From Bacteroidaceae bacterium (GTDB taxonomy: Bacteria; Bacteroidota; Bacteroidia; Bacteroidales; Bacteroidaceae), in contig JAFXNA010000014.1 of NCBI GenBank assembly GCA_017529865.1, forward strand, positions 52,503 through 116,502: a stretch of 64,000 nucleotides of DNA. The letters run 5' to 3'. Made by a program: the position numbers and the translations under genes. Below the pieces are notes generated by a model. That model was not told the origin of the DNA and made no database searches. It saw only the letters and a list, made by a program, of their open reading frames with translations. Below, piece by piece: positions 44,045-56,792 of this stretch. How positions within the stretch are numbered: the stretch's first letter is position 1; every line of letters starts with the position of its first letter.

Positions 44045-45547
44045 ATGTCAATGTTCAATAATCCTGCCCATAAAGGGGGAGTTAGAGGGGGTCTGTTCGC
44101 TGTTGACTTAGGGGCCACAAGCGGACGTACCATTCTCGGCTCAATCGCATCAGGGAAACTCCAACAAAGGGAACTGACCCGATTTCCCAATCCAATCATC
44201 CAAACTGGAGGGCACTACTTCTGGGATATCTATGCGCTGTATCAGGAAATCATACGAGGCTTGCGCATTGTAGCGAAAGAGGGAATCGAACTCCAAAGTA
44301 TAGGTATTGACACATGGGGCGTGGACTTCGTTTGTGTTGGGCGCGACGGAGGCATTCTGCGCAACCCATACTGCTATCGTGACCCACATACCAACGGCAT
44401 GATGGAAGAGTATTTCCGATTGATTCCAAAAGAGCAGGTATATGAGAAAACGGGCATTCAATTCATGAATTTCAATTCTTTATTCCAACTCTTTGCGATG
44501 CGTCAGCATGACGACTCTGCCTTGGCAGCAGCCGATAAGATTCTATTCATTCCCGATGCCCTGACATACATGCTGACTGGTAAGGCTGTTTGCGAATATA
44601 CCATCCTCAGTACCAGTCAGATGCTCGACCCACGCACCAAACGGATTGACCATGAGCTGATCAATGCCATCGGACTGGAAGAGAGCCAATTCGGCCGCTA
44701 CGTCAACCCAAGCGAGGTGGTAGGCACATTGACACCCGAAGTACAGAAACTGACAGGACTGGATGCCATACCTGTAGTAGCTGTAGCAGGGCACGATACC
44801 GGCGCCGCAGTAGCGGCAGTCCCAGCCAGCAACGAACGATTTGCATACCTCAGCTGCGGTACATGGAGCTTGTTGGGCATCGAAACCCGAGATGCCATCA
44901 TTAACAAACAGAGCTATACATACAACTTCACCAACGAAGGAGGTATAGAGGGCACTACCCGCTTCCTGAAAAACATCTGTGGTATGTGGCTTTTGGAACG
45001 ATGCCGCCAAGAGTGGACCGATGCACCTTCCGACATCAATCAGGTAAATGCTGATGCTATGGAAGCTGTACCTTTCCGCAGCCTAATCAACCCTGACGAC
45101 CCACGATTTGCAAACCCCGTCAGTATGGTTCAAGCCATCAAAGGCTACTGCCGGGAAACTCACCAGCCTATCCCGGAAGACTACCGTCAAATGGCACGAT
45201 GTATCTTCGAGAGTCTGGCTTTGCGCTACCGTCAGGTCCTGGGATATCTCAAAGAACTCGCCCCATTCCCCATCGAGCGCTTGCATGTCATTGGTGGAGG
45301 CAGTCGAAACATCTATCTCATGCAGATGACAGCCAATAGCATCGGCATTCCTGTACTGACAGGTCCTGTAGAAGGCACTGCCATCGGCAACATCATGCTC
45401 CAAGCGAAAGCTGCAGGACTAGTCAGCGATATCTACGACATGCGGCGAATGATTGCCCAAAGCATTGAGATGCAAACCTACCTGCCTCAAGACAAGGCAA
45501 CATGGGACAATGCCTACGAACAATTTACGAATTTATTAACTACATAA
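44045..45547 (+). CDS. rhaB: Rhamnulokinase
   Basis: A 500-residue FGGY-family kinase that phosphorylates L-rhamnulose. FAVDLGATSGRTILG near the start, GIDTWGVDFVCVG, AGHDTGAAVAAVP, LSCGTWSLLGIE and VIGGGSRNIYLMQMTANS with EGTAIGNIMLQ are all family features. Other proteins begin with a few residues before FAVDLGATSG; here the first ~15 residues (MSMFNNPAHKGGVRGG) are encoded by a GC-rich palindromic repeat, so the original start was overwritten. It is the first of four rhamnose genes. Confidence 0.94.
   Translation: MSMFNNPAHKGGVRGGLFAVDLGATSGRTILGSIASGKLQQRELTRFPNPIIQTGGHYFWDIYALYQEIIRGLRIVAKEGIELQSIGIDTWGVDFVCVGRDGGILRNPYCYRDPHTNGMMEEYFRLIPKEQVYEKTGIQFMNFNSLFQLFAMRQHDDSALAAADKILFIPDALTYMLTGKAVCEYTILSTSQMLDPRTKRIDHELINAIGLEESQFGRYVNPSEVVGTLTPEVQKLTGLDAIPVVAVAGHDTGAAVAAVPASNERFAYLSCGTWSLLGIETRDAIINKQSYTYNFTNEGGIEGTTRFLKNICGMWLLERCRQEWTDAPSDINQVNADAMEAVPFRSLINPDDPRFANPVSMVQAIKGYCRETHQPIPEDYRQMARCIFESLALRYRQVLGYLKELAPFPIERLHVIGGGSRNIYLMQMTANSIGIPVLTGPVEGTAIGNIMLQAKAAGLVSDIYDMRRMIAQSIEMQTYLPQDKATWDNAYEQFTNLLTT
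44058..44095. repeat. GC-rich repeat forming the rhaB N-terminus
   Basis: ATCCTGCCCATAAAGGGGGA then GTTAGAGGGGGTC, the 3' half of the same element family, located between the start codon and the conserved FAVDLG. Confidence 0.75.
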
Positions 45548-45558
45548 TGACCATCACA

Positions 45559-46812
45559 ATGAAAAGCGAACAAATCACTAAAGCCTATGAACTGGCTAAA
45601 GCACGCTATGCCGATTTAGGCATCGATACAGAGAACGTAATCAATCAACTACAAGATTTCCACCTCAGTATGCATTGTTGGCAAGCCGACGATGTAGCAG
45701 GTTTCGAAGTACAGGCAGGAGCACTCTCTGGTGGCATCCAGAGCACTGGGAACTATCCTGGTAAGGCTCGAAACATCGATGAGTTGAGAGCAGATGTGCT
45801 GAAAGCAAAGAGTCTCATTCCCGGCAACCATCGTCTGAACCTCCATGAAATTTATGGTGACTTCAAAGGAAAGGTTGTAGACCGTGATGAAGTCGACATC
45901 ACTTATTTCCAGAGTTGGATTGACTGGGGAAAGGAATACAACACAAAACTCGACTTCAATTCCACAAGTTTCTCCCATCCAAAGAGTGGCAACCTCAGTC
46001 TCTCTAATCCTGATGACAGCATCCGCAATTTCTGGATTGAACACACAAAGCGTTGTCGTGACATTGCCAATGCTATCGGAGAGGCACAAGGCGACCCTTG
46101 TATCATGAATCTATGGGTACACGATGGCTGCAAGGACCAGAGTGTCAACCATTTCCTCTATCGTCATTACCTGAAGGATTCGCTCGACCAGATCTTCGCC
46201 AAGCCTCAGCCAATGATGAAGGACTGCATCGAAGGAAAGGTGTTCGGCATAGGACTGGAGAGTTTCACCGTCGGCAGCCATGATTTCTACACTGCCTATG
46301 CTGCGAAGAATAACATCATCCTTACCATCGACACAGGTCACTATCACCCCACTGAGAGTCCTGCCGACAAGGTAAGTGCTGTGCTGCAGTTCGTTCCCGA
46401 ACTGATGCTACATGTCAGTCGTCCCGTACGTTGGGATTCCGATCACGTAACCATCATGGACGACCCCACTCAGGAACTTTTCTCTGAGATTGTCCGTGCC
46501 AATGCAATGGACCGTGTTCACTATGGTCTCGACTTCTTCGATGGTAGCATCAACCGCATTGGAGCTTACGTCATAGGCTCACGGGCAGCTCAAAAGTGTA
46601 TGACTCGCGCTTTATTGGAACCAACAGCCCAACTCAGCCGCTATGAGTTGGAAGGCAAGGGATTCCAAGTGCTCGGTCTGCTCGAAGAAGCCAAAGCATT
46701 ACCTTGGAATGCAGTCTATGATGAATTCTGCCAACGCAATGACGTGCCTGTCGGTGCCGACTTCATTGCTGCTATTGAGCAATACGAACGTGATGTTACA
46801 AGCAAAAGATAA
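45559..46812 (+). CDS. rhaA: L-rhamnose isomerase
   Basis: A 417-residue TIM-barrel isomerase converting L-rhamnose to L-rhamnulose. The early block FHLSMHCWQADDVAGFE, WIDWGKEYNTKLDFN, and the metal-ligand region HDGCKDQ with TIDTGHYHPTESPADK fit the family. The start is chosen at ATG 45559 (MKSEQITKAYELAKARYADLG), which matches the usual length; ATG 45547, overlapping the rhaB stop as TAATG, would add four residues. Confidence 0.93.
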   Translation: MKSEQITKAYELAKARYADLGIDTENVINQLQDFHLSMHCWQADDVAGFEVQAGALSGGIQSTGNYPGKARNIDELRADVLKAKSLIPGNHRLNLHEIYGDFKGKVVDRDEVDITYFQSWIDWGKEYNTKLDFNSTSFSHPKSGNLSLSNPDDSIRNFWIEHTKRCRDIANAIGEAQGDPCIMNLWVHDGCKDQSVNHFLYRHYLKDSLDQIFAKPQPMMKDCIEGKVFGIGLESFTVGSHDFYTAYAAKNNIILTIDTGHYHPTESPADKVSAVLQFVPELMLHVSRPVRWDSDHVTIMDDPTQELFSEIVRANAMDRVHYGLDFFDGSINRIGAYVIGSRAAQKCMTRALLEPTAQLSRYELEGKGFQVLGLLEEAKALPWNAVYDEFCQRNDVPVGADFIAAIEQYERDVTSKR

Positions 46813-46827
46813 TAATTGGAATCATTT

Positions 46828-48318
46828 ATGAATACGGAAATAGTTTCTGACAAATCTTCGCATGTTGCAGAAGTAACCACTCCCCGCCCTTCTCTCCCCC
46901 TTGGGGGGAGTGCGAAGGGGGAAAATCCGTCTTGTCCCCCCTCAGTCCCCCGTAGGGGGAAGACTGAGGGGCAAGGGGGCGGGTCTTCTTCTTTGAAGAG
47001 CACCATTGCGGTGTCTCTTACCAATTACCTCGATGCAGGAGCCATCGTAGCAGGAGCCAGTGGACTTACCCTCTGGCAAAACTATCTAGGTCTCTCCGAA
47101 GTTCATTTGGGATGGCTCAATTTCATCAGTGCCAACTGTCTGGGTGCCGCCATCGGTGCCATCATCGGCGGATTCCTGGCCGATAAGTACGGACGTAAGT
47201 TCATCTACACCTACAACCTCTTAGTCTATATGGCAGGAGTGTTGTTGGTTATGTGTTCTGTCAACTTCCCCATGCTCCTAGCCGGTTTCCTTGTGACAGG
47301 AATCTCTGTTGGTATCGGAGTACCAGCTTCTTGGACCTACATCTCTGAGAGCTCCGAGATTCACAACCGTGGTCGTAACATCTGCATCTCACAGATGTCA
47401 TGGGGATTCGGTCCGATGATCATCCTCCTGTTGGGCATGTTCTTCGCCCCTGGAGGTTACTTGTTCAGTTGGGTTGAAGCCATCGGACACGCCATCGGCG
47501 GAGCCGGTCTCAATGGAGCAGCACTCAATGTGTTCAGTTCTCGAGTCGTGTTCTGCTCGCTCTTCATCGTCGCATTCATTGCATGGAACCTACAACGCCG
47601 CCTCGATGAGTCGGGCGAATGGAAAGCCAGTCGTCAGGCCTCGGAAGCCAAGGGCGAAGACACTGGTCTGCTGCATGCCTTTAGTGTATTGTTCTCCAAC
47701 AAGACAGCCATCAAGACCGTATGCTTCCTCGCCACCATCTACCTTACTTGGAACCTCGTGGCATCCGTCATGGGATTCTTCCAGCCGCATATCTACGAGA
47801 CAGCTGGTGGTCTCTCCAACGAATACGCAAACATGCTCAGTTGTGTGGGATGGGTCATCGTGGTAGCCATCACTTTTGTCCTCTCGTTCTTCATCGACAA
47901 GTTCTCTCACAAGATGTTTTACATCCTTGGCCTGCTGGCAGCCCTTGCCACTTGGGTAGTCATCATCACAGGCGTGAACGGTATGGCAACTCTCTGGGCT
48001 TTCTCCATTCTTTGGGGCATCAATGGCGGTATCTCCGTCCAGATATTCTATGCCCTTTGGGGGTCAGAGTTATTCCCTGCCAAGTTCCGTGCCGGTGCAC
48101 AAGGCCTGATGTTCTTCATCGTACGTGGTCTCTCAGCCGTATGGGGACTTGTCTTCACCTACATCTATGGTGAAAACGGTGAAGGGTTCACCATCGCAGC
48201 CTATTGCATGATTGCCCTCCTACTCATCTCCCTCGTCGTAGGCATCATCGGATGTCCCAACACACGAGGCAAGTCACTCGAACAAATCACCCGCGAACGT
48301 TATGGAGAGGATTATTAA
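46828..48318 (+). CDS. MFS transporter of the sugar-porter type, probably for L-rhamnose
   Basis: A 496-residue inner-membrane transporter with twelve predicted helices. FLADKYGRKFIYTYNLL (loop 2-3 signature), SWTYISESSEIHNRGRN and the R-x-G pattern are of the major facilitator superfamily sugar porters. Its place between rhaA and rhaD implies L-rhamnose uptake. The first ~55 residues are odd: a long double palindromic repeat (46879-46990) encodes PRPSLPLGGSAKGE and RRGKTEGQGGG in front of helix 1. The start is ATG 46828; TTG 46816 is less likely. Confidence 0.88.
   Translation: MNTEIVSDKSSHVAEVTTPRPSLPLGGSAKGENPSCPPSVPRRGKTEGQGGGSSSLKSTIAVSLTNYLDAGAIVAGASGLTLWQNYLGLSEVHLGWLNFISANCLGAAIGAIIGGFLADKYGRKFIYTYNLLVYMAGVLLVMCSVNFPMLLAGFLVTGISVGIGVPASWTYISESSEIHNRGRNICISQMSWGFGPMIILLLGMFFAPGGYLFSWVEAIGHAIGGAGLNGAALNVFSSRVVFCSLFIVAFIAWNLQRRLDESGEWKASRQASEAKGEDTGLLHAFSVLFSNKTAIKTVCFLATIYLTWNLVASVMGFFQPHIYETAGGLSNEYANMLSCVGWVIVVAITFVLSFFIDKFSHKMFYILGLLAALATWVVIITGVNGMATLWAFSILWGINGGISVQIFYALWGSELFPAKFRAGAQGLMFFIVRGLSAVWGLVFTYIYGENGEGFTIAAYCMIALLLISLVVGIIGCPNTRGKSLEQITRERYGEDY
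46879..46990. repeat. Long GC-rich double palindrome inside the rhamnose transporter gene
   Basis: Two units side by side: CTCTCCCCCTTGGGGGGAG at 46892-46910 and CTCAGTCCCCCGTAGGGGGA with AGACTGAG at 46941-46968, with outer GTCCCCCC and CAAGGGGGC arms. This is the largest copy in the window. Confidence 0.85.
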
Positions 48319-48330
48319 TGAATCCCCTTC

Positions 48331-48363
48331 ATAACGATATCCCGTTATAACGTAATAACGAAC
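48331..48363. repeat. TAACG-rich palindromic text before rhaD
   Basis: ATAACGATATCCCGTTATAA followed by CGTAATAACG; GTTATAAC and CGTAATAACG resemble the sequence at 54994-55026 in the sulfur operon (TATAACGTGATAACG). It occupies the gap just before the rhaD start. Confidence 0.55.
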
Positions 48364-48366
48364 ATC

Positions 48367-49188
48367 ATGAATTCAATACTACATAACCGCCCCGCCCTGA
48401 AAGCCATCATCGACGACGTCGCCGAAGTCACCGGCTATCTCTGGCAAAACGGATGGGCCGAACGTAATGGTGGTAATATCACCGTCAACATCACCGAGTT
48501 TGTCGATGCCGACATCGCAGCCATGCCTGCCATCGCCCCTGTGCGACCCATCGGCAAGGTGCTGCCAATGCTCCGAGGCAAGTATTTCTATGCCAAGGGT
48601 ACAGGCAAGCGCATGCGCGACCTGGCACGATGGCCCATGCAGAACGGAGCCGTCATCCGCATCTGCGACGACTGCGCATCCTATGAGATCATTGCCGACG
48701 AGCCGGTCATCCCTACCAGCGAACTGCCCTCTCATCTCGCCCTGCAGAACTGCCTGTTAGAGACAGGCAGTCAGTACAAGGCCACCCTGCACACCCATCC
48801 CATCGAACTGGTGGCAATGAGCCACAACGAGCGGTTCCTCCGTCCGGGCGAACTGACCCATGTGCTGTGGTCCATGATACCCGAGACCCTTGCCTTCGCA
48901 CCCCTCGGCATCGGCATCGTACCCTACACCCTCCCAGGCTCTGTAGCACTCGCGGATGCTACCCTCGAGCAAATCCGTCATCACGATGTGGTACTCTGGG
49001 AAAAACACGGCACGGTGGCAGTAGGTCGTGACATCATGGATGCTTTCGACCAGACCGATGTACTCTGCAAGGCCGCAAAAATTTACCTTGCCGCCCGTGC
49101 CATGGGCTTCGAACCACAAGGCATGACCGATGAAGCGATGCAAGAAGTACAGCAAGTTTTTAAACTCCCGAAAGAACGGATAGGATAA
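48367..49188 (+). CDS. rhaD: Rhamnulose-1-phosphate aldolase
   Basis: A 273-residue class II zinc aldolase that splits L-rhamnulose 1-phosphate into dihydroxyacetone phosphate and L-lactaldehyde. Zinc ligands are visible in LHTHPIELVAMSH and the third His in VVLWEKHGTVAVG; GWAERNGGNITVN at the start is the phosphate site of the family. It closes the rhamnose operon and is followed by a hairpin terminator shared with the convergent cysE gene. Confidence 0.94.
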   Translation: MNSILHNRPALKAIIDDVAEVTGYLWQNGWAERNGGNITVNITEFVDADIAAMPAIAPVRPIGKVLPMLRGKYFYAKGTGKRMRDLARWPMQNGAVIRICDDCASYEIIADEPVIPTSELPSHLALQNCLLETGSQYKATLHTHPIELVAMSHNERFLRPGELTHVLWSMIPETLAFAPLGIGIVPYTLPGSVALADATLEQIRHHDVVLWEKHGTVAVGRDIMDAFDQTDVLCKAAKIYLAARAMGFEPQGMTDEAMQEVQQVFKLPKERIG

Positions 49189-49190
49189 CA

Positions 49191-49224
49191 AAAAAATGCC
49201 GGAGTATTTACTTCGGCATTTTTC
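49191..49224. terminator. Bidirectional terminator between rhaD and cysE
   Basis: AAATGCCGGAG and CTTCGGCATTT pair around TATTTA, with an A-run before and a T-run after, so it can stop transcription from both convergent operons. Confidence 0.85.
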
Positions 49225-49225
49225 A

Positions 49226-50143
49226 TTATATTCCAAGTCCTCCCTCAAAATGCATTTCAACGGCCTTGGTCTGTTGAATGCGCGAATGAGGTGCAACATT
49301 GTGCGTAACCCAGATATTGCCACCAATGACAGAATGATGACCAATGGTGATTCGCCCAAGGATGCTAGCGTTGGAATAGACAGTGACATAATCTTCGATG
49401 ATGGGATGGCGCGGCACATTGAGCATATTGCCCTGGGCATCATACTTGAAACTCTTGGAGCCTAATGTCACTCCTTGATAAAGTGTTACATGGTTACCGA
49501 TAACACATGTCTCTCCGATAACCACTCCCGTACCGTGGTCGATGGCAAAAAACTCACCAATCTGGGCTCCTGGGTGGATATCAATACCAGTCTTGGAATG
49601 TGCCAATTCGGTAATGATTCGAGGGATGACGGGTATATGCAGCTCATGGAGTTTGTGAGCGATGCGATAGTGGGTCATCGCATTCACTACGGGATAGCAG
49701 AAGATAACCTCTCCATAGTTAGGGGCTGCAGGGTCGTTGTCGTACATTGCCTGCACATCTGTGTAGAGCAATCGCTTGATTTCGGGCAAGGCATCAACGA
49801 ACTGCAATGCTAACTGCTCTGCCTTCTCATACACTTGCTGCTTTGTTGAGATGGCACGACTATCATCGCCAAACTGCAAACCGTGGGCTATCTGCTTTAT
49901 TAGCAGCTTCAGCAACTCCTCCATGTGTACACCGATATAGTAGGAACGGATGGTCTCATTGGGTTGCCGCTTGGTGAAATAGTCAGGGAAAATGATACTT
50001 TTTACCAAACAAACCACTTGCTTCACCTGATCTACAGAAGGCAACGGAGCCTCTGTCAGAGGCATCATACCGACTTCCTGGTCCGTCAGCCTTGACAGCA
50101 GGTTCACATTACGCATCAGCGTCTCGTTGGTTTTCTTTTCCAT
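49226..50143 (-). CDS. cysE: Serine O-acetyltransferase
   Basis: A 305-residue SAT, making O-acetylserine, the acceptor for cysteine synthesis. A helical N-terminal domain is followed by a left-handed beta-helix of hexapeptides: HPGAQIGEFFAIDHGTGVVIGE holds the catalytic DHG, then GNHVTLYQGVTLG. The N-terminus is longer than in E. coli CysE and resembles EpsC-type enzymes. It is the last gene of the nine-gene sulfur cluster and lies 79 bases after the JAMM protease gene; the gap has microrepeats (GCTTAGTAGCTTAG), so a separate transcript cannot be excluded. SAT genes are known neighbours of encapsulin-linked cysteine desulfurases. Confidence 0.9.
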   Translation of the reverse strand: MEKKTNETLMRNVNLLSRLTDQEVGMMPLTEAPLPSVDQVKQVVCLVKSIIFPDYFTKRQPNETIRSYYIGVHMEELLKLLIKQIAHGLQFGDDSRAISTKQQVYEKAEQLALQFVDALPEIKRLLYTDVQAMYDNDPAAPNYGEVIFCYPVVNAMTHYRIAHKLHELHIPVIPRIITELAHSKTGIDIHPGAQIGEFFAIDHGTGVVIGETCVIGNHVTLYQGVTLGSKSFKYDAQGNMLNVPRHPIIEDYVTVYSNASILGRITIGHHSVIGGNIWVTHNVAPHSRIQQTKAVEMHFEGGLGI

Positions 50144-50222
50144 ATTCTTTAAGAATTAATGCTTAGTAGCTTAGTCGTTTGAAGGTTATAGGTCCTATCC
50201 GATATCCACTAACAGCCAACCA

Positions 50223-50621
50223 TTACAAGTGCTCTTCTTTGTCCACCACCTCGCCATTGAGGATGAGAAAGGAGTTAAGGTGAACACCCTCAAATAGCGA
50301 GAGGATGGCATAGCGGATGGTTGGGTCGTTTGCCAGTCGGAGGTCTTCCTTTGAAGGGCGCGAAGGCGAGGCTGGATGACTGTGCCAATTTGCGAGAATT
50401 TTTAGTCCTTTGGAACGAGCATACTTCAGTGCAGCAAATTGGTCCTTCGGAGCAAACGAGAAATGTTCGGGCGAGTGGTCAATGTTTTCCATCCAGTAAT
50501 TCTCCTTCACAACATCACCATCTGGGCCACAGATGCCCAGCAGGTAGCCGCACGTCTCATTGGGTGCGTCCTGCCGAGCCTGGCGGATTAATTCATCTAT
50601 GATTTCTTTGGGTATAATCAT
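50223..50621 (-). CDS. JAMM (Mov34/MPN) family metalloprotease, M67-like
   Basis: A 132-residue JAMM-domain protein. The metal site is complete: Glu in PNETCGYLLG, then NWHSHPASPSRPSKED. Bacterial stand-alone JAMM proteins beside a ThiF-type enzyme and a ThiS/MoaD-type carrier (as in QbsD or Mec+) trim the carrier C-terminus or release cysteine from it. The start is ATG 50621, four bases after the previous stop. The carrier in this operon ends in extra residues after Gly-Gly, which gives the protease an obvious substrate. Confidence 0.88.
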   Translation of the reverse strand: MIIPKEIIDELIRQARQDAPNETCGYLLGICGPDGDVVKENYWMENIDHSPEHFSFAPKDQFAALKYARSKGLKILANWHSHPASPSRPSKEDLRLANDPTIRYAILSLFEGVHLNSFLILNGEVVDKEEHL

Positions 50622-50625
50622 GGAA

Positions 50626-51435
50626 CTAATGAGATTTGAGGTCACATGCGGCCTGTTCATAATCAATCAGGTGGTCGATTGTGGGACTTGAACCGCAAAT
50701 CGGACACGAATCACGATGCTTCACGGTGACAGTGCGGAACAGCATTGTCTTTGCATCGAAGGTAAGCAGACGGTTCGTCAACAGTTCGCCCACACCCGTG
50801 AAATACTTCAGTGTCTCAGCAGCCTGGATAGTGCCAAGCATACCTGCAATGGCACCCAACACTCCTGCCTGCGAACAGGTAGGAACGGCTCCTGCTGGAG
50901 GCGGTTCCTTGAACATACAACGGTAGCAAGCAGTGCCAGGCAAGTGGGTAAACGTCTGACCATTAAAGCGCAAGATGCCACCATGCGAGAAGGGTTTTTC
51001 TGCCATCACACACGCATCGTTGATGAGGAACTTTACGGGGAAATTGTCTGTACCATCAACAATGAAGTCGTACTGACGAATGATGTCGAGCGCATTTGAC
51101 GAGTCGAGGAATTCAAAATAGGTATCTACCTTTACATCGGGATTGATGGCTTCGATTTTCTCCTTTGCACTTTTTACCTTCGGAACACCCACATCCTTAG
51201 TGAAATGAATCACCTGACGTTGCAGGTTCGAGAGATCCACGACGTCGGCATCAACAATTCCGATAGTGCCTATACCTGCTGCTGCAAGGTAGAGCGATAC
51301 GGGAGCGCCAAGCCCTCCTGCGCCCACCACAAGCACTCGAGCATTCATAATCTTCTCCTGCCCCTCTACACCCACATCCTGCAACAGGATATGGCGTGAA
51401 TAGCGTTTGATTTGTTCTTCTGTAAAGTCTATCAT
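50626..51435 (-). CDS. ThiF/MoeB/HesA-family E1-like adenylyltransferase
   Basis: A 269-residue enzyme that adenylates the C-terminal Gly of a ubiquitin-like sulfur carrier. The nucleotide site is VLVVGAGGLGAPVSLYLAAAG, then DADVVDLSNLQRQ and DGTDNFPVKFLIND; zinc cysteines are CYRC and CPIC. There is no C-terminal rhodanese domain, so sulfur must come from another protein, here probably TusA-like, DsrE-like or the cysteine desulfurase. A possible internal -7 box TACATTTG lies at 51448-51455 on this strand, 13 bases before the start. MoeB and ThiF cannot be told apart from sequence alone. Confidence 0.9.
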   Translation of the reverse strand: MIDFTEEQIKRYSRHILLQDVGVEGQEKIMNARVLVVGAGGLGAPVSLYLAAAGIGTIGIVDADVVDLSNLQRQVIHFTKDVGVPKVKSAKEKIEAINPDVKVDTYFEFLDSSNALDIIRQYDFIVDGTDNFPVKFLINDACVMAEKPFSHGGILRFNGQTFTHLPGTACYRCMFKEPPPAGAVPTCSQAGVLGAIAGMLGTIQAAETLKYFTGVGELLTNRLLTFDAKTMLFRTVTVKHRDSCPICGSSPTIDHLIDYEQAACDLKSH

Positions 51436-51531
51436 ATTTACTATTTACAAATGTACTTTTTTTACTCTCCAGCTATTTCGAACTAACAAGGGCGTAGCCA
51501 AATCGTAAATAGGAAATAGCTAAATTGTAAA

Positions 51532-51741
51532 TCACATGCCTCCTCCCATGAAGTACAGGAAATCTACAATATCGCCTTCCTTGATTTGCAGGCCATCCCA
51601 CTCAGCACGGTCCACAAAATCATCGTTTACCTGCACGCTGACCATATCGGGCTGAGAAACGTCGTTCTGCTTGATTAACTCTGTGAGATTAAGAGGCAAC
51701 AGCACCTCCTGCGTCTCTCCGTTTACTATTATCTTTGCCAT
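51532..51741 (-). CDS. ThiS/MoaD-like sulfur carrier with C-terminal GGGM
   Basis: A 69-residue beta-grasp protein: VNGETQEVLLPLNLTELI, VQVNDDFVDRAEWDG and EGDIVDFLYFMGGGM fit ThiS. Functional carriers must end exactly in Gly-Gly to be adenylated; this one ends in Gly-Gly-Gly-Met. Removal of one or two residues by the JAMM protease encoded two genes downstream would expose it. It lies three bases after the cysteine desulfurase gene, so the two are probably made together. It could serve thiamine, molybdopterin, or the cysteine pathway. Confidence 0.85.
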   Translation of the reverse strand: MAKIIVNGETQEVLLPLNLTELIKQNDVSQPDMVSVQVNDDFVDRAEWDGLQIKEGDIVDFLYFMGGGM

Positions 51742-51744
51742 AGA

Positions 51745-53274
51745 CTATCTTCCTATAATCTTTTTAACTGCTATAACTAATTTGTCCACATCTTCGCGAG
51801 TATTGTAGAGTGCAAAGGTAGGGCGGACACTCATCTCATAACCAAGGGCTCGAAGGGCGGGCTGGGCACAGTGATGACCTGCACGCACGGCAATGCCTTC
51901 CTTATCAAGCAGAGTACCGACCTCTGGTACGGGAATGCCGTCAAGCACAAAACTTACAACTGACACACGATTCTTAGGATTGCCAATAAGCGTCAGGCCA
52001 GGTATCTGTCCGAGTTGTTCGCGGGCGTACTCCGTCAGTTGATGCTCGTGGTGCTCTATATTACGAATACCCAGATAGCTTACATAATCGAGCGCTGCAC
52101 CCAATCCAATTGCGTCAGCCACATTAGGTGTACCTGCCTCGAAACGGGCAGGCGGCACATTGTACTCCGTGCGTTCTATGGTCACATCCTTAATCATGTT
52201 GCCACCACCTTGCCAAGGCTGCATCTTATCCAATAGTTCCTTGCGGCCATACACCACACCGATGCCGTTAGGGCCGTATATCTTATGGCCGCTGAACACG
52301 AAAAAGTCAGCACCGAGCGCCTGTACATCCACAGGTGTGTGGGCAATCGACTGTGCACCATCGATCAGTACAGGTATCTGGTGAGCATGCGCAATGTCAA
52401 TGATGCGCTGCACATCGTTGATGGTACCAAACGTGTTGTTCACATGCCCTACTGAGACGAAGCGCGTGCGAGGTGTGATGAGTCGCTCTAGTTCGGAGAG
52501 AATCAGGTCGCCGTTCTGGTCTGTTGGGATGGCGCGTAACGTCGCTCCCCGTTCCTGACAAACGCGCTGCCAAGGTACGATGTTCGCATGGTGGTCGAGT
52601 TCAGAGACAATGACTTCGTCGCCTGGTGTTAGGAACTGCCGTCCGTAGGTCTGCGCCACGAGGTTGATGCCCTCGGTGGTACCGCGCACGAAGATGATCT
52701 CCTCGCTCGTAGCGGCGTTGATGAAGCGCTGCACCTTCTCACGGGCTTCCTCGTAGGCATCCGTCGCACGAGCTGCTAATGTGTGTGCGCCGCGGTGGAT
52801 GTTCGAGTTGTACGTACGGTAGTAGTCCGAAATCTTATCAATCACCTGATTAGGCTTCTGTGTCGTTGCACCATTATCCAACCACACGAGGTCGTGGCCG
52901 TTCACCTTCTGCTGCAGCACGGGGAAGTCCTTCTTGATCTGCTCCGAGTTCAGCGTGTCGGCCTCTTCATAGTGCAAGTCACGCAGTTTCTGCGTCTCAG
53001 GGATGCCGATGCCGAAGCCATTGTCTGTAGGCAACGATGAGGTTTGAGCATCTGTATCTCCAAGGTATGGAAGATCGCCATAGCCACTACCTCCAGCCAG
53101 AAGTTGCTTGAAGCCTGCCTCCAACTCTGAGAGATTCAGTTGCTCGTCAGGCAGTACCGCCTTCCTTTCAGCCTGTAGTTCCTCAGGGCAGTATTTTTGT
53201 GCGATTTCCTTCAGCAGAGCCAGCGATCCACCGTCCTGTGCAGGGAAACTATTAAGTTCAGCTATATTGATCAT
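51745..53274 (-). CDS. Cysteine desulfurase with long N-terminal extension, predicted encapsulin cargo
   Basis: A 509-residue SufS/CsdA-type (group II) PLP enzyme that takes sulfur from cysteine as persulfide. The PLP lysine is Lys331 in SGHKIYGPNG and the persulfide Cys is Cys469 in RAGHHCAQPALR. DNGATTQKPNQVID and the HANIVPWQ block are typical. A normal SufS has about 405 residues; here residues 1 to about 105 are extra, with predicted short helices (LNLSELEAGFKQLLAG) and a Gly/Pro/Asp-rich disordered part (GSGYGDLPYLGD, TDNGFGIGIPE). Family 2 encapsulins load cysteine desulfurase through such extensions. The ATG follows the shell gene stop codon with no gap (TAAATG), so shell and cargo are translated as a pair. 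Confidence 0.93.
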   Translation of the reverse strand: MINIAELNSFPAQDGGSLALLKEIAQKYCPEELQAERKAVLPDEQLNLSELEAGFKQLLAGGSGYGDLPYLGDTDAQTSSLPTDNGFGIGIPETQKLRDLHYEEADTLNSEQIKKDFPVLQQKVNGHDLVWLDNGATTQKPNQVIDKISDYYRTYNSNIHRGAHTLAARATDAYEEAREKVQRFINAATSEEIIFVRGTTEGINLVAQTYGRQFLTPGDEVIVSELDHHANIVPWQRVCQERGATLRAIPTDQNGDLILSELERLITPRTRFVSVGHVNNTFGTINDVQRIIDIAHAHQIPVLIDGAQSIAHTPVDVQALGADFFVFSGHKIYGPNGIGVVYGRKELLDKMQPWQGGGNMIKDVTIERTEYNVPPARFEAGTPNVADAIGLGAALDYVSYLGIRNIEHHEHQLTEYAREQLGQIPGLTLIGNPKNRVSVVSFVLDGIPVPEVGTLLDKEGIAVRAGHHCAQPALRALGYEMSVRPTFALYNTREDVDKLVIAVKKIIGR

Positions 53275-54714
53275 TTATTTCTCTACTTTATTCCTATGCT
53301 GATAATCATGATAGTAGCCCACCTCGACATTTTCGAGTACGGCAATAGCATCGTCTGTGAGAGCTGCCAACGAAAAGTACTTCGTGAGCAGATAGGAGGC
53401 GACACCAAACTTATCGAGTCCCATCAGACGGGCTGAAAGTGATGGTGCTATCTCGCCTGGGATGCCACTCTGATGCAGACCGACTACACCTTGACTCTTC
53501 TCTCCCACGCGAACGAGGATAATCTTTGTCGTACCTACACCTCGACCTGTCAGGTATTGCCCCTCGACTTCTACCTTGTCGGATGGGATCAAAGGAACTC
53601 CACGCCACAGAATGACTTTCGTGCCAAAGAGGTCAGTGGTTACAGGTGGCACACCACGCCATGTACATTCGCGCTCAAAGGCAGCGATAGCACGCGGATG
53701 GGCAATAAAGAAGGCTGGTTCCTTCCATACCAACGAAAGCAATTCGTCGAGGTCATCAGGCGTAGGGGCACCATAACGCGTGGTAATGCGGTAAGCTGGG
53801 TTTGTAGCGGCCAGCAAACCGAACTTCTTGTTGTTGATGAGTTCCCACTCCTGACGCTCCTTGATGCTCTCAATCGAAAGACGCAACTGCTCCTCCAACT
53901 GGTTGTAAGGATTGTTATAGAGGTCGCTGACACGGGTATGCACACGTACAACTGTTTGCAGAGTATTTAGTGGATATTCCGTAGGGTTCTCCTCGTAGTC
54001 GATGTAGGTCTCAGGGATGATGTTGTCTTCCTCGTGACCAGAGACCAGATCGATATGCTTCTCGCCATTGTCGTTCACAGATGCCTTTAGACGCAATTGC
54101 TTATCAACGGCCTTGTTGAACGTCTCGCGGAAGTCTGGTACCTCCTTGATGAATTTGATGAGGTCCTTCAGTTTCAGACCAAGGAACACGGTCGGTGTAA
54201 TGGCGCGTACGGAGACAGTTGATTCCTGCTCGTCCAGCAGATCGGCCTCACCGAAGTATTCACCGTCACCCAGCAGTGCAATCCGCAGTTCTTCTCCGTG
54301 AGGTCCCTTACTGATGACCTCAGCCTGCCCGCTTGCCACTATGAAGAAGCGCTGTTTGTCCTTACCCTCTTCTACGAAGAGTTCGTCAACATTTACTTCT
54401 TTCGTCTCGAACGAACTAACCAAACGAGTCAGTATCTCGTCGTCGAACTCAGAAAAGAGTGGAATCGCTTTCAGGTTCTTTGCTGTAAACGACGGAACGC
54501 CGTTCACATACTGAATGGGCAGGCGATCGTTTTTGCGAAGCTCCACCTTCGTGCGGTTTACACGGAACGTGCCGCCAGAAACCTGTACCCAAGGCAAAAG
54601 TTTCAGCAAGAGTCTCGGAGTGATACTGCCCATCTGCGGAGCGGTCTTCGTAGTCGTCGCCAATCGTCTGGCGGTAGCAGTGGTCACACTGCGCTGTAAA
54701 TTAGAATCAGCCAT
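53275..54714 (-). CDS. Family 2B encapsulin shell protein (SrpI-like) with inserted cyclic-nucleotide-binding-like domain
   Basis: A 479-residue HK97-fold shell protein. Residues 1-83 form the N-terminal arm (RSVTTATARRLATTT, then LLKLLPWVQVSGGTFRVNR), 84-207 are a cyclic-nucleotide-binding-like domain (LFSEFDDEIL, ASGQAEVISKG, GDGEYFGEADLLDE), and 208-479 are the P and A domains (NNPYNQLEEQLRLSIESIKERQEW, RVGEKSQGVVGLHQSG, LTKYFSLAALTDDAIAVLENVEV). This layout is that of family 2B encapsulins, which build virus-like shells around cargo. In the binding domain the phosphate-binding Arg of cAMP proteins is missing: the cassette reads DEQESTVSVRA where an Arg-Ser/Ala pair is expected. Cargo is encoded immediately downstream. 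Confidence 0.92.
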   Translation of the reverse strand: MADSNLQRSVTTATARRLATTTKTAPQMGSITPRLLLKLLPWVQVSGGTFRVNRTKVELRKNDRLPIQYVNGVPSFTAKNLKAIPLFSEFDDEILTRLVSSFETKEVNVDELFVEEGKDKQRFFIVASGQAEVISKGPHGEELRIALLGDGEYFGEADLLDEQESTVSVRAITPTVFLGLKLKDLIKFIKEVPDFRETFNKAVDKQLRLKASVNDNGEKHIDLVSGHEEDNIIPETYIDYEENPTEYPLNTLQTVVRVHTRVSDLYNNPYNQLEEQLRLSIESIKERQEWELINNKKFGLLAATNPAYRITTRYGAPTPDDLDELLSLVWKEPAFFIAHPRAIAAFERECTWRGVPPVTTDLFGTKVILWRGVPLIPSDKVEVEGQYLTGRGVGTTKIILVRVGEKSQGVVGLHQSGIPGEIAPSLSARLMGLDKFGVASYLLTKYFSLAALTDDAIAVLENVEVGYYHDYQHRNKVEK

Positions 54715-54746
54715 AATCTTTTGATGTCTTTAATGTTTATATTGTT

Positions 54747-54971
54747 TTACTTCTTAATCGTTACCTTATGTGTCGTGCCCTCCACATGTTCTACGGAGAG
54801 TACGTTAAACCCTTGCTCCTTGGCGTTGCGTGGCACATTGTCCAGTGGCTCACCTTCCGCGAGCAAGACCTCAAGTATATCGCCCGGCTGGAGCTTCGAT
54901 AGCTCGATTTTGGTTTTGACAAAGGTCATCGGGCAGTGTTCCTTCGTAATGTCTAATACTTTAGTTGCCAT
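54747..54971 (-). CDS. TusA/SirA-like sulfur carrier
   Basis: A 74-residue protein with the TusA fold: VLDITKEHCPMTFVKTKIEL contains the sulfur-carrying Cys13 followed by Pro-Met. PGDILEVLLAEGEPLDNV is the usual second half. TusA accepts persulfide from cysteine desulfurases and passes it on. It is 32 bases before the shell gene and 58 after the DsrE-like gene. The gap upstream has TATAACG-type palindromic text at 54994-55026. Confidence 0.88.
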   Translation of the reverse strand: MATKVLDITKEHCPMTFVKTKIELSKLQPGDILEVLLAEGEPLDNVPRNAKEQGFNVLSVEHVEGTTHKVTIKK

Positions 54972-54993
54972 CTTTTTTGTTTTGTTTACTGTA

Positions 54994-55026
54994 ATAATAC
55001 GTTATACCGATATAACGTGATAACGT
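54994..55026. repeat. TAACG-rich palindromic text before the tusA-like gene
   Basis: AATACGTTATACCGATATAA then CGTGATAACGTC; ACGTTATA and TATAACGT face each other around CCGA. Similar to 48331-48363. Confidence 0.55.
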
Positions 55027-55029
55027 CAT

Positions 55030-55509
55030 TTAAATGAATAGCGTCTGTCCTCCTTCACTCAGATTCAGGAACGATGCCACACCGAGCACGTCCTTCACCT
55101 CTGGTATAAAGTCTTCCTTCTTGAGACCCAGTACATGCATTGCCATCTCACAGGCGTAGAAATTGATGCCGAGTGCCTTTGCTGCTTCCACCAGTTCCTC
55201 AAGCGTAGCCACATTGTTCTTGCGCATTAAGTAGCGAAATATCTTGGGGCCTGCACCGAGGAAGTTGAAACGGCTCGTGGGAGTAACTTTCAGTCCGCCC
55301 ATCATAAAGCCGAAGACCTTCGTCAGCCAGTTTCCACCTATGAACGAGCGTCCCTGCTTCTGCTTGATAGCATCAAGCCCCCAAAAGGTGAAGAAGATGT
55401 TCACCTCGTAGCCTACTGCTGCTGCACCCGTACCTAATGTAAATACCGCTGTCAGTTTGTCAAAATCACCACTGAAGGCGATGATGCTTAGTTTCTTTGT
55501 CTCTGCCAT
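55030..55509 (-). CDS. DsrE/DsrF-like sulfur-relay protein
   Basis: A 159-residue DsrE-family protein with an N-terminal Rossmann-like strand (KLSIIAFSGDFDKLTAVFTLG), an EVNIFFTFWGL strand and a conserved Cys in FYACEMAMHVLGL, which is the likely sulfur acceptor. The hydrophobic centre (WLTKVFGFMMGG) is typical of the larger DsrE/DrsH-like group often found beside TusA and rhodaneses. It starts 12 bases after the PLP enzyme gene and is probably co-transcribed with it. Confidence 0.87.
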   Translation of the reverse strand: MAETKKLSIIAFSGDFDKLTAVFTLGTGAAAVGYEVNIFFTFWGLDAIKQKQGRSFIGGNWLTKVFGFMMGGLKVTPTSRFNFLGAGPKIFRYLMRKNNVATLEELVEAAKALGINFYACEMAMHVLGLKKEDFIPEVKDVLGVASFLNLSEGGQTLFI

Positions 55510-55521
55510 ATTTTATATGTT

Positions 55522-56697
55522 CTATTCTTTAAGTGCCTGTTGAATGTCTTGCAAAAGATCCTCGGGTGCTTCGAGTCCGATGGAAAGCCGGATGGTAGTT
55601 TGTCGCACGTCCATCTGCTGCAGCTGCCGCTCTGGGAATAGCCCGAAGATGGTGGATGCGGGATGGATAGCCAATGTTCGGCTGTCGAAAAGATTGGTCG
55701 CACGATGAATCAGTCGCAGACGATTCATGAAGTTGAAGCAATGCTCCTTCGTCTGCAGGTCGATGGTGAGCATGGCACCTGCTGTCGGTCCGAACTGACG
55801 CCGTGCCAGATCGTGATATGGATTGTCCTTCAACCCAACATAGTTAACTGCAACGATAGCGGGCTGCTCTCTGAGCGCCTCTGCCAACCACAGCGCATTG
55901 GCTGCCTGCCTCTGGTAACGCACATCAAGGGTCTCCAAACCGAGGGTCTGCATATAGGCGGTCTGTGGAGTCATATATACGCCAAGATTTATGAGCAGGT
56001 CGTACTTCACCAGTTTGTTAATCTGCGGGAAGGTGCCGTAGTCGATAATCAGGCCACCCAACGAAGTGCCGCCACCCGAGATATACTTCGTGCTCGACAC
56101 CACCTCAACATCCACACCCAGATCCTTCAACGAGGTCTCGGTAAACGGAATTACGGTTGAGTCGGCTATCACTGGCACGCCCTTCCTATGAGCTATTTCA
56201 GCGATGCCCTTTAAGTCAGCCACTTCCAGTTGCGGATTGGTAACTGTCTCTAAATACACACAAGCGGTCTGCTCATCGATAGCCGCCTCTACCGCTTCCA
56301 GATCGGTAAGGTCGCGCAGTCGGGGTTTCACACCAAGCCGCAACAGCGTACCACTGATGAGTGCCAGCGTGTTGCCAAACAAATGACGTGAGGTAACAAT
56401 GTTCTTACCCTGAGCAACAACAGCCAAAAGCACAGTGCTAATAGCAGCCATACCCGAGTTCAGCGCCGTCACATGCTCTGCCTCGGTCAGTGCCTTCACT
56501 CGTTGTTCAAACTGGGTCACTGTGGGGTTCGCAATGCGTGCATAATCGGGTGCCTTGATGCGGTTGCAGAAGGCATCGCTCATCGTCTGCGCATCCGAGA
56601 ACTCGAACGACACATTATTATATATAGGTACTGCCAGTGACCCGTAGACATCGGGGCGGACATAGGGGGTGTGGATAGCTGTTGTCTGTTTCTTCAT
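55522..56697 (-). CDS. Cys/Met-metabolism PLP enzyme (gamma-synthase or gamma-lyase type)
   Basis: A 391-residue fold-type I PLP enzyme. The PLP lysine is in SSTKYISGGGTSLGG; TAEHVTALNSGMAAIS and ETVTNPQLEVADL are family signatures, and RLSIGLEAPEDLLQD ends the protein. Family members include cystathionine gamma-synthase, O-acetylhomoserine sulfhydrylase and methionine gamma-lyase; the sequence does not decide. As the first gene of the sulfur operon behind a good promoter, it probably makes or breaks a C-S bond that feeds the desulfurase. Confidence 0.88.
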   Translation of the reverse strand: MKKQTTAIHTPYVRPDVYGSLAVPIYNNVSFEFSDAQTMSDAFCNRIKAPDYARIANPTVTQFEQRVKALTEAEHVTALNSGMAAISTVLLAVVAQGKNIVTSRHLFGNTLALISGTLLRLGVKPRLRDLTDLEAVEAAIDEQTACVYLETVTNPQLEVADLKGIAEIAHRKGVPVIADSTVIPFTETSLKDLGVDVEVVSSTKYISGGGTSLGGLIIDYGTFPQINKLVKYDLLINLGVYMTPQTAYMQTLGLETLDVRYQRQAANALWLAEALREQPAIVAVNYVGLKDNPYHDLARRQFGPTAGAMLTIDLQTKEHCFNFMNRLRLIHRATNLFDSRTLAIHPASTIFGLFPERQLQQMDVRQTTIRLSIGLEAPEDLLQDIQQALKE

Positions 56698-56702
56698 TTT
56701 GC

Positions 56703-56759
56703 TCCTGATTGCAGGTGCCCAAGATACACGAAATGTAACTTCGTACCTGATTGCGGGTA
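56703..56759 (-). repeat. Repeats in the leader of the sulfur operon
   Basis: On the coding strand ACCCGCAATCAGG and ACCTGCAATCAGG occur as direct repeats, 33 bases apart, and between them ACGAAGTTACATTTCGT forms a hairpin with a 7-base loop. They lie between the -7 box and the first start codon. Confidence 0.65.
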
Positions 56760-56792
56760 CAAAGTTACTACTACAACGACCATATTTCCAAG
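56760..56792 (-). promoter_or_regulatory. Promoter of the sulfur/encapsulin operon
   Basis: On the minus strand TTGG (56788-56791) is 20 bases before TAACTTTG (56760-56767), an almost ideal Bacteroidetes promoter. The first gene starts at 56697, after a leader of about 60 bases with repeats. Confidence 0.75.

What the first reader, a model, noticed from the sequence alone, without database searches (positions are those of the whole stretch)
49226..56792. Encapsulated cysteine desulfurase embedded in a nine-gene sulfur-relay operon
Seen: one promoter, then nine minus-strand genes with mostly tiny gaps: PLP Cys/Met enzyme, DsrE-like, TusA-like, SrpI-type shell protein, cysteine desulfurase, ThiS-like, ThiF/MoeB-like, JAMM, SAT. 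Known: family 2 encapsulins package cysteine desulfurase, and such shells have been linked to sulfur storage; SAT and rhodanese genes are known neighbours. What looks new is the complete relay around it: TusA, DsrE, a ubiquitin-like carrier with its E1 and trimming protease. Inference: sulfur stored in the shell is released to the carrier and used for cysteine or cofactor synthesis.
Basis: partly seen in the sequence, partly recalled or inferred. Interest (0 to 1): 0.93.

Follow-up and report, generated by a model that had tools for sequence, protein, structure and literature searches.

The report
Encapsulated sulfur source feeding amino-acid relay
A genome close to rumen Prevotella carries, in one operon, genes for a virus-like (encapsulin) shell protein, a cysteine-splitting enzyme predicted to sit inside the shell, and a ubiquitin-like sulfur-carrier relay; the set is kept together in many related bacteria and likely moves sulfur from cysteine into new sulfur amino acids (homocysteine first) without free sulfide, a route that would be new if confirmed.

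Summary
The nine genes are real and as described. The shell is a family 2B encapsulin (562.7 bits, cut-off 400). The PLP enzyme groups with PDB 3ri6 (recalled: the thiocarboxylate-dependent Wolinella MetY) on a 100/100 branch, apart from the genome's two classical sulfhydrylases. The ubiquitin-like carrier looks like a pro-protein: 76 of 76 carriers have FMGGG, 75 with a variable 1-19 residue tail, while 5 of 5 other ThiS proteins in the same genomes end exactly at GG, so the JAMM protease has a predicted job. In 295 genomes of the order, all 7 with a full-length shell also hold the relay marker DsrE2 (12 hold it). Shell-less relay loci instead sit beside a sulfite reductase, mostly fused to TusA; 12 of 14 shell genomes checked, the window's included, have no such reductase. 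Reading: where sulfite reductase is gone, encapsulated cysteine desulfurase likely replaces it as the relay's sulfur source, feeding homocysteine and sometimes cysteine. Shell and relay are each known kinds; their coupling was not found in print in the held library. No chemistry was tested.

The parts
55522..56697 (-). MetY-like O-acetylhomoserine sulfhydrylase (391 aa), grouping with PDB 3ri6 (recalled: Wolinella, thiocarboxylate-dependent)
   Evidence: PF01053 315 bits; 3ri6 325.1 bits against 248 for the next PDB chain; below the classical TIGR01326 cut-off (313.8 of 495.1); tree 100/100
55030..55509 (-). DsrE2-type sulfurtransferase (159 aa), conserved Cys in ACEMA
   Evidence: PF13686 136 bits; NF047629 67.4 bits, below its cut-off of 210; CEM in 87 of 90 rows, the other 3 being fragments or masked
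54747..54971 (-). TusA-type sulfur carrier (74 aa), CPMT motif
   Evidence: PF01206 71.5 bits; CP motif in 90 of 90 rows, 2 of which are TusA domains of sulfite reductases
53275..54714 (-). family 2B encapsulin shell protein (479 aa) with internal cNMP-type domain, residues 110-190
   Evidence: NF041163 562.7 bits, cut-off 400; PF19307 and PF00027; residues 7-466 aligned to solved chain 9bje, E 3e-115
51745..53274 (-). SufS-type cysteine desulfurase (509 aa) with about 110-residue N-terminal extension, the predicted cargo
   Evidence: TIGR01979 564.8 bits, cut-off 475.1; NF041166 724.6 bits, under its cut-off of 800; N-terminal extension in relatives; RxGHHC in 92 of 102 rows, 6 of the other 10 without a stop in the contig
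51532..51741 (-). ThiS-like pro-carrier (69 aa) ending FMGGG-M
   Evidence: PF02597 and TIGR01683; 76 of 76 carriers of relatives have FMGGG, 75 with a tail
50626..51435 (-). E1-like ThiF/MoeB adenylyltransferase (269 aa), no rhodanese domain
   Evidence: PF00899 272.6 bits, no other Pfam match; PTCSQAGV in 73 of 78 E1 rows
50223..50621 (-). JAMM/Prok-JAB metalloprotease (132 aa), predicted carrier-tail trimming enzyme
   Evidence: PF14464 83.4 bits (on the longer TTG form 50223-50666); HxHP...SxxD motif in 71 of 72 rows, the other cut by a contig end; best PDB match 2kks, uncharacterized
49226..50143 (-). serine-acetyltransferase-like protein (305 aa)
   Evidence: TIGR01172 160.8 bits, below cut-off 210.65; PF00132
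56734..56803 (-). putative promoter (TAACTTTG at 56767-56760) overlapped by a 13-pair inverted repeat
   Evidence: sequence; inverted repeat; TAnnTTTG upstream in 11 of 13 relatives printed
49192..49223 (.). hairpin with terminal A/T runs after the last gene, possible transcription terminator
   Evidence: 14-pair stem (the number of such sites in the region equals the shuffle mean, so weak)

Best explanation
This operon encodes a family 2B encapsulin shell protein, a cysteine desulfurase that is its predicted cargo, and a thiocarboxylate-type relay (TusA, DsrE2, tailed ThiS-like carrier, E1, JAMM protease, 3ri6-type MetY), and it likely carries sulfur taken from cysteine, through a shell-held persulfide or sulfur pool, onto the carrier and then into homocysteine without free sulfide. 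Steps: (1) cysteine would enter the shell and be desulfurised by the cargo (inferred from the family 2A system). (2) Sulfane sulfur would leave, or be released from store, to TusA and DsrE2 (inferred). (3) JAMM would cut the variable tail after GGG, and the E1 would adenylate the freed glycine and swap in sulfur, giving carrier-COSH (inferred; the tailed carrier and the conserved enzyme motifs are shown). (4) MetY would use carrier-COSH with an O-acyl homoserine to make homocysteine (inferred; the MetY grouping is shown). Where CysK and the acetyltransferase are present, cysteine could be made the same way. The relay also exists beside a sulfite reductase in shell-less relatives (shown), so the encapsulated desulfurase would be an alternative sulfur inlet for bacteria without sulfite reductase.
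For: Shell type. MetY grouping: 3ri6 325.1 bits, next chain 248; one of the genome's two other MetYs (C36) ranks 3ri6 30th at 251 bits against 493-503 for the best chains; tree 100/100. Pro-carrier: 76 of 76 FMGGG, 75 of 76 tailed, 41 distinct tails, against 5 of 5 other ThiS proteins ending at GG. Co-occurrence: 7 of 7 full-length-shell genomes hold the relay marker DsrE2, 12 of 295 hold it at all, Fisher 2e-11; ThiS, E1 and JAMM were seen in 9 of the 12, the other 3 being limited by contig ends. Named relatives with full flanks: DsrE2, TusA and CD 44 of 44, MetY 43, ThiS, E1 and JAMM 39, in several gene orders. Source swap: L071, L073, L238 and L239 carry sulfite reductase fused to TusA, L072 a 389-residue one ending 34 bases before its contig end; of the 12, 6 have shell only, 3 sulfite reductase only, 1 both, 2 neither; sulfite reductase is itself enriched among the 12 (4 of 12 against 14 of 283, p 0.0036). 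G000 has no NIR_SIR and no PAPS_reduct match, an HTS/MetA-family gene, and three full-length PF01053 matches: the operon MetY and two OAH sulfhydrylases above the TIGR01326 cut-off (6 further weak partial matches), so no cystathionine gamma-synthase or beta-lyase of this family was seen.
Against: G000 has two classical OAH sulfhydrylases and a CysK elsewhere, so the operon is not its only route. CysK (18 of 80) and SAT (13 of 80) come and go, which blurs the product. ThiS, E1 and JAMM are missing near the shell in 5 of 44 full-flank loci; in B14 they lie about 46 kb away with sulfite reductase, so direct hand-over is not obligatory. G064 and B14 keep both sources; two of the 12 have neither. 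G221, G229 and, more weakly, G111 keep PAPS_reduct genes although they show no NIR_SIR, so loss of sulfate use is not complete in all shell genomes and another sulfite reductase type cannot be excluded. DsrE2 and TusA also occur with sulfite reductase, so they are not specific to the desulfurase. The cargo scores below the curated cargo cut-off (724.6 of 800), whose model is for 2A cargo. How a TusA-sized protein draws sulfur from a shell whose relative has a 3.7 A pore (PMC8049743) is unexplained. The S. elongatus 2A knockouts had no growth defect (PMC8049743).
Confidence: 0.48

Rival explanations
1. Sulfur bank for cysteine: the shell stores sulfane sulfur taken from surplus cysteine, and the relay draws it out again to remake cysteine from O-acetylserine (SAT plus CysK); MetY is a side branch.
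For: SAT is in the window operon; CysK lies in 18 of 80 named loci and in L069, L033, L035 and L037; 8 probably Chlorobiaceae 2B shell loci have CysK (8 of 8) and mostly SAT (6 of 8) beside shell and CD; a paper calls encapsulated cysteine desulfurases sulfur storage systems (PMC12407261, passage).
Against: The window operon has no CysK; 44 full-flank loci hold MetY in 43 but CysK in 10 and SAT in 8; carrier and JAMM are not needed for sulfide-dependent CysK (established knowledge).
Confidence: 0.23
2. Neighbours but not partners: the encapsulated desulfurase serves storage or Fe-S needs, and the relay is an independent amino-acid module that takes sulfide- or sulfite-derived sulfur; they are linked only because both respond to sulfur limitation.
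For: The relay exists without the shell (L071, L072, L073) and the shell without an adjacent relay (presumed Chlorobiaceae and 2A loci); in B14 they lie about 46 kb apart.
Against: In the order sampled, 7 of 7 full-length-shell genomes have DsrE2, and DsrE2, TusA, shell and CD stay in one locus in 44 of 44 full-flank loci through several rearrangements of the rest.
Confidence: 0.19
3. The relay makes a sulfur cofactor (thiamine, molybdopterin, thiolated tRNA) or detoxifies reactive sulfur rather than making amino acids.
For: ThiS/E1 folds; G000 shows only this one PF02597 match and one E1 homologue.
Against: In 5 of the 14 genomes searched a second, GG-ending ThiS exists apart from the tailed carrier; the conserved neighbours are MetY, CysK and SAT, and the nine operon genes include no thiamine or molybdopterin enzyme.
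Confidence: 0.07

Closest known systems
Family 2A/2B encapsulins with cysteine desulfurase cargo (SrpI type; PMC8049743, PMC8346489, passages read)
   Same: SrpI-type shell, adjacent SufS-type desulfurase with N-terminal extension, SAT among the neighbours; 199 family 2B CD operons already counted in print
   Different: Here the pair is tied to a carrier-E1-JAMM-TusA-DsrE2-MetY relay; the words ThiF, TusA, DsrE and sulfhydrylase do not occur in the main text of PMC8346489; the operon's nine genes include no rhodanese
Protein-thiocarboxylate homocysteine synthesis of Wolinella (HcyS/HcyD/HcyF/MetY names recalled; reference title seen in PMC5764234) and row 4e clusters of PMC1779556 (passages)
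   Same: ThiS-like carrier, JAB protease, E1 without rhodanese, SirA/TusA, OAH sulfhydrylase grouping with 3ri6
   Different: Known clusters take sulfur from sulfite/sulfate reduction; the window's takes it from an encapsulated cysteine desulfurase (inferred) and has DsrE2, which also occurs in shell-less Bacteroidales loci
CysO-CysM-Mec+ cysteine synthesis of actinobacteria (names recalled; rows 4c-4d of PMC1779556)
   Same: Carrier, JAMM protease and, in some relatives, a cysteine synthase in one operon
   Different: No cysteine synthase in the window operon; the two relatives' enzymes scanned (L035, L037) pass the CysK but not the CysM cut-off; MetY is the near-constant enzyme

Membership tests
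Family 2B encapsulin | SrpI-like HK97 shell sequence | tested here: met
   PF19307 373 bits; NF041163 562.7 bits, cut-off 400
Family 2B encapsulin | internal cNMP-type domain | tested here: met
   PF00027 55.9 bits at residues 110-190; residues 7-466 aligned to solved chain 9bje
Family 2B encapsulin | self-assembles into a closed shell | not testable with these tools
   needs purification and electron microscopy
Family 2 encapsulin cargo (cysteine desulfurase) | SufS-type domain encoded next to the shell, with an N-terminal extension | tested here: met
   0-base gap to the shell gene; TIGR01979 564.8 bits at residues 112-506
Family 2 encapsulin cargo (cysteine desulfurase) | curated cargo model NF041166 cut-off | tested here: not met
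   724.6 bits, cut-off 800; the model is for the longer 2A cargo and aligns from its position 217 only. Filed as predicted cargo, not as a member of that model's family
Family 2 encapsulin cargo (cysteine desulfurase) | N-terminal targeting motif like LARLANEFFS | tested here: inconclusive
   LALLKEIAQKYCPEE resembles it and recurs in Prevotella relatives by eye; no statistic was made; the second published motif was not seen in the window protein
Protein-thiocarboxylate amino-acid pathway | carrier with residues after the terminal GG that must be removed | tested here: met
   75 of 76 carriers tailed; other ThiS proteins of the same genomes 0 of 5 tailed
Protein-thiocarboxylate amino-acid pathway | E1, JAMM, TusA/SirA and OAH sulfhydrylase in the cluster | tested here: met
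Protein-thiocarboxylate amino-acid pathway | sulfite-reduction genes in the cluster (row 4e) | tested here: not met
   no NIR_SIR or PAPS_reduct match in the whole assembly (94.8% complete); met in shell-less relatives. So this is a variant, not a row 4e cluster
Protein-thiocarboxylate amino-acid pathway | thiocarboxylate formed and consumed | not testable with these tools
   needs mass spectrometry and reconstitution
Thiamine biosynthesis ThiS | ThiS ending in GG | tested here: not met
   window carrier ends GGGM; second ThiS proteins in 5 relatives end GG
Sulfur-storing encapsulin | elemental sulfur in shells | not testable with these tools
   needs purified shells and sulfur analysis

The most novel reading that the evidence does not exclude
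Rumen Prevotella without sulfite reductase swapped that enzyme, as the source of a thiocarboxylate relay, for a nanocompartment: an encapsulated cysteine desulfurase acts as a sulfur bank whose output is loaded on a ubiquitin-like carrier and turned directly into homocysteine, a sulfide-free and cystathionine-free transsulfuration pathway.
Probability: 0.38. Interest if true: 0.87.

Novelty: new variant of a known kind. Interest (0 to 1): 0.73.

Why it matters
What encapsulated cysteine desulfurases do with their sulfur is open: in S. elongatus the knockouts showed no growth defect (PMC8049743, passage). This operon names candidate acceptors and end enzymes conserved beside the shell, so the question becomes testable with a short list of proteins. 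It would also be a further way from cysteine to homocysteine and would link ubiquitin-like carrier chemistry to a protein organelle. Strain records that are not titled as metagenome assemblies carry the shell: Segatella baroniae B14, Xylanibacter ruminicola D31d, Prevotella sp. P6B1 and khp7.

Tried and rejected
Thiamine or molybdopterin role for the carrier: judged unlikely because separate GG-ending ThiS proteins exist in 5 relatives. cAMP-regulated shell: the position of the recalled cNMP-binding Arg reads STVSVRA in the window type, and PMC12407261 states that the 2B insertion domain does not bind cyclic nucleotides (passage); rejected as a mechanism. The first count of 93 of 295 genomes with shell matches was set aside: only 7 are full-length (68% identity or more); the other 86 match weakly (E 3e-13 or worse), mainly over the cNMP-type domain. 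SAT as a fixed member: rejected, present in 13 of 80 named loci. RNA families (gathering threshold) and tRNAs in the window: none. Sigma-70 promoter-like and terminator-like counts are close to the shuffles. The MetY tree was first built with a 95-residue fragment and a long-branch row and rebuilt without both, same result. The E1 tree has long branches and a 72-residue fragment (L071); it is used only for the remark that B14's sulfite-reductase-linked E1 falls with Prevotella shell-linked E1s. The paper search is weak, since 'ThiS' also matched the word 'this'; one search returned mostly off-topic papers. Structure prediction and fold search were not used; sequence matches to solved 2B shells sufficed. 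Protein search returned Prevotella-like near-copies among its 120 listed rows and was not used further.


Full report
Observation. The window's minus strand holds nine consecutive genes from 56697 down to 49226: MetY-like enzyme, DsrE2, TusA, shell, cysteine desulfurase, ThiS-like carrier, E1, JAMM, serine-acetyltransferase-like protein. Pfam and NCBIfam agree. Gaps are 12, 58, 32, 0, 3, 96, 4 and 79 bases. The shell is above the curated cut-off for family 2B encapsulins (562.7 of 400 bits) and aligns over residues 7-466 with a solved chain of the same build, 9bje (its PDB name is only 'Crp/Fnr family transcriptional regulator'). The window lies in G000, a 3.32 Mb assembly (94.8% complete, 59 contigs); its closest named relatives by shell are rumen Prevotella records at up to 98% identity.

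Conservation. Of 295 genomes of the order, 93 match the shell query, but only 7 are full-length shells (68-100% identity); the other 86 match weakly, mainly over the cNMP-type domain. The operon's DsrE2 has a clear ortholog (60% identity or more) in 12 of 295, one of them a contig-end fragment (G243), with a gap down to 43%. All 7 shell genomes are among the 12 (Fisher 2e-11). ThiS, E1 and JAMM were seen in 9 of the 12; in G239, G243 and G270 the contig ends too soon. Gene order changes while membership stays: ThiS-E1-JAMM divergent in one main type, downstream of the desulfurase in another, upstream in a third. In more distant genomes (L033, L034, L035, L037) most of the same genes appear reshuffled. 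Of the five full-flank exceptions, L137 (Segatella baroniae B14) keeps ThiS, E1 and JAMM about 46 kb away on the same replicon; L105's genome keeps ThiS and E1 outside the fetched 10 kb; L115's genome shows ThiS and an E1 fragment at a contig end; L149 and L156 were not followed. Of two further genomes searched because their loci were cut (L124, L094), neither showed a close E1 or a ThiS.

The MetY. The window enzyme scores 325.1 bits against PDB 3ri6 and 248 against the next chain. I recall 3ri6 as the O-acetylhomoserine sulfhydrylase of Wolinella succinogenes, for which sulfur donation by a protein thiocarboxylate was reported (recalled; the reference title is in PMC5764234; the paper itself is not held). 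G000's two other full-length PF01053 proteins are classical sulfhydrylases, above the TIGR01326 cut-off (601.7 and 587.6 of 495.1 bits); the first scores 503 against 8wko (named methionine gamma-lyase), 493 against 8sf5 (OAH/OAS sulfhydrylase) and 251 against 3ri6. In trees the operon, shell-less and sulfite-reductase-linked MetYs and 3ri6 lie on one side of a 100/100 branch (17 rows). One of these rows, L240 of G123, lies beside CysK on another contig than that genome's carrier genes.

The pro-carrier. Of 76 carriers with a readable end, 76 contain FMGGG and 75 go on for 1 to 19 further residues, with 41 distinct tails. Of 18 PF02597 matches in 14 genomes, 13 are of this type and 5 (L205, L208, L209, L214, L216; probably thiamine ThiS, surroundings not checked) stop exactly at GG. 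A fixed GGG with a free tail is what a trimming protease would leave unselected; the JAMM motif is intact in 71 of 72 rows, the other being cut by a contig end. Trimming is inferred.

Two sulfur sources for one relay. Shell-less relay loci (L071, L072, L073) run ThiS-E1-DsrE2-TusA-JAMM with a sulfite reductase next to them; in L071, L073, L238 (B14) and L239 (G064) this protein ends in a TusA domain, while in L072 it is 389 residues and stops 34 bases before the contig end. In B14 siroheme-type and sulfate-activation genes follow (two PAPS_reduct and one TP_methylase confirmed, the rest by eye). Among 295 genomes PF01077 is found in 18; in the 12 relay-marker genomes: shell only 6, sulfite reductase only 3, both 1, neither 2 (G270 and G243, whose DsrE2 lies at or near a contig end). 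Of 14 shell genomes checked, 12 lack NIR_SIR; G064 and B14 have it. G000 lacks PAPS_reduct too, but G221 and G229 keep two strong PAPS_reduct genes each and G111 one, so sulfate activation is not lost throughout. The missing sulfite reductase is the main reason to see the encapsulated desulfurase as a replacement inlet. The numbers are small, and two genomes keep both.

Product. G000 has an HTS/MetA-family gene and no cystathionine gamma-synthase or beta-lyase of PF01053 (enzymes of other families were not searched), so homocysteine from cysteine sulfur would need either free sulfide or this relay. CysK and SAT in some operons suggest that cysteine can be a product too. Both steps are inferred.

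Comparison. In the phylum, PF19307 is found in 61 of 395 genomes: G000, 6 in two other families of the class, 54 in one family outside it (unnamed; genome size and gene content suggest Chlorobiaceae, my inference). In that family 8 of 8 fetched loci have CysK beside a 2B shell and desulfurase and 6 of 8 have SAT, with no DsrE2, TusA or ThiS hit in the stretch (L187 is cut within CysK). Three 2A loci (L193-L195) have shell, desulfurase and CysK. In this sample the relay is therefore the Bacteroidales addition. A published survey names SAT and rhodanese as accessories (PMC8346489, passages); the words ThiF, TusA, DsrE, sulfhydrylase and Prevotella do not occur in its main text. In the held library no paper has encapsulin with thiocarboxylate or with sulfurtransferase, and the two with Prevotella are, by title, off topic. 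Most subscription papers are not held, and the sulfur-storage paper on a family 2A encapsulin is recalled, not read, so absence from print is only as good as these searches.

Limits. Cargo packaging, sulfur storage, carrier chemistry and product are untested. How sulfur crosses the shell is open: the related SrpI pore is 3.7 A (PMC8049743, passage), judged there small enough to pass cysteine but far too small for TusA.

Noticed in passing
window 56734-56769 (-): A 13-pair inverted repeat covers the operon's -7 box; it is the only repeat of this form in the 64 kb window (shuffle mean 0.05). Possible operator or leader hairpin.
   Followed up: partly
upstream of operons in L100, L102, L117, L118, L129 and others: TTTAGAATA/TATTCTAAA sites: 21 in 14 of 66 upstream regions against 0.74 expected by shuffles and 0.23 from the rest of the loci. 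Likely a shared operator.
   Followed up: partly
L077-L088, between ThiS(-) and DsrE2(+): Several divergent-type loci share a central near-palindrome (GGTAAATCGCATACC...GGTATGCGAAATGCC) between two opposed TAnnTTTG boxes (by eye).
   Followed up: no
L188:12069-12713, L238:6453-7094 and others: A NarL-type response regulator lies in 31 of 80 named loci, mostly next to the operon, and in 6 of 8 presumed Chlorobiaceae shell loci; no match in the window.
   Followed up: partly
L073:5074-5514, L239:15607-16044, L240:6306-6749: Rrf2/CymR-like regulators near the sulfite-reductase-type relay or its MetY; one scanned (L073), 94 bits, below the CymR cut-off of 195.
   Followed up: partly
L077:11614: The desulfurase N-terminal extension is expanded by tandem copies of about 14 residues (by eye).
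   Followed up: no
L037:770-6242: The G064 shell locus lies beside genes that look like NifH, NifB and nitrogenase-type subunits (by eye).
   Followed up: no
L033, L035, L089, L092, L109: An ATP-grasp-like and an esterase-like gene pair recurs next to the operon; the ATP-grasp match is weak.
   Followed up: no
L034, G221:C2:59876-60743: CysK beside this relay matches in two separate open frames, so it is probably broken or misassembled.
   Followed up: no
window 45502-49188 (+): Convergent neighbours look like rhamnose catabolism (isomerase, transporter, class II aldolase); only the aldolase family was confirmed.
   Followed up: no
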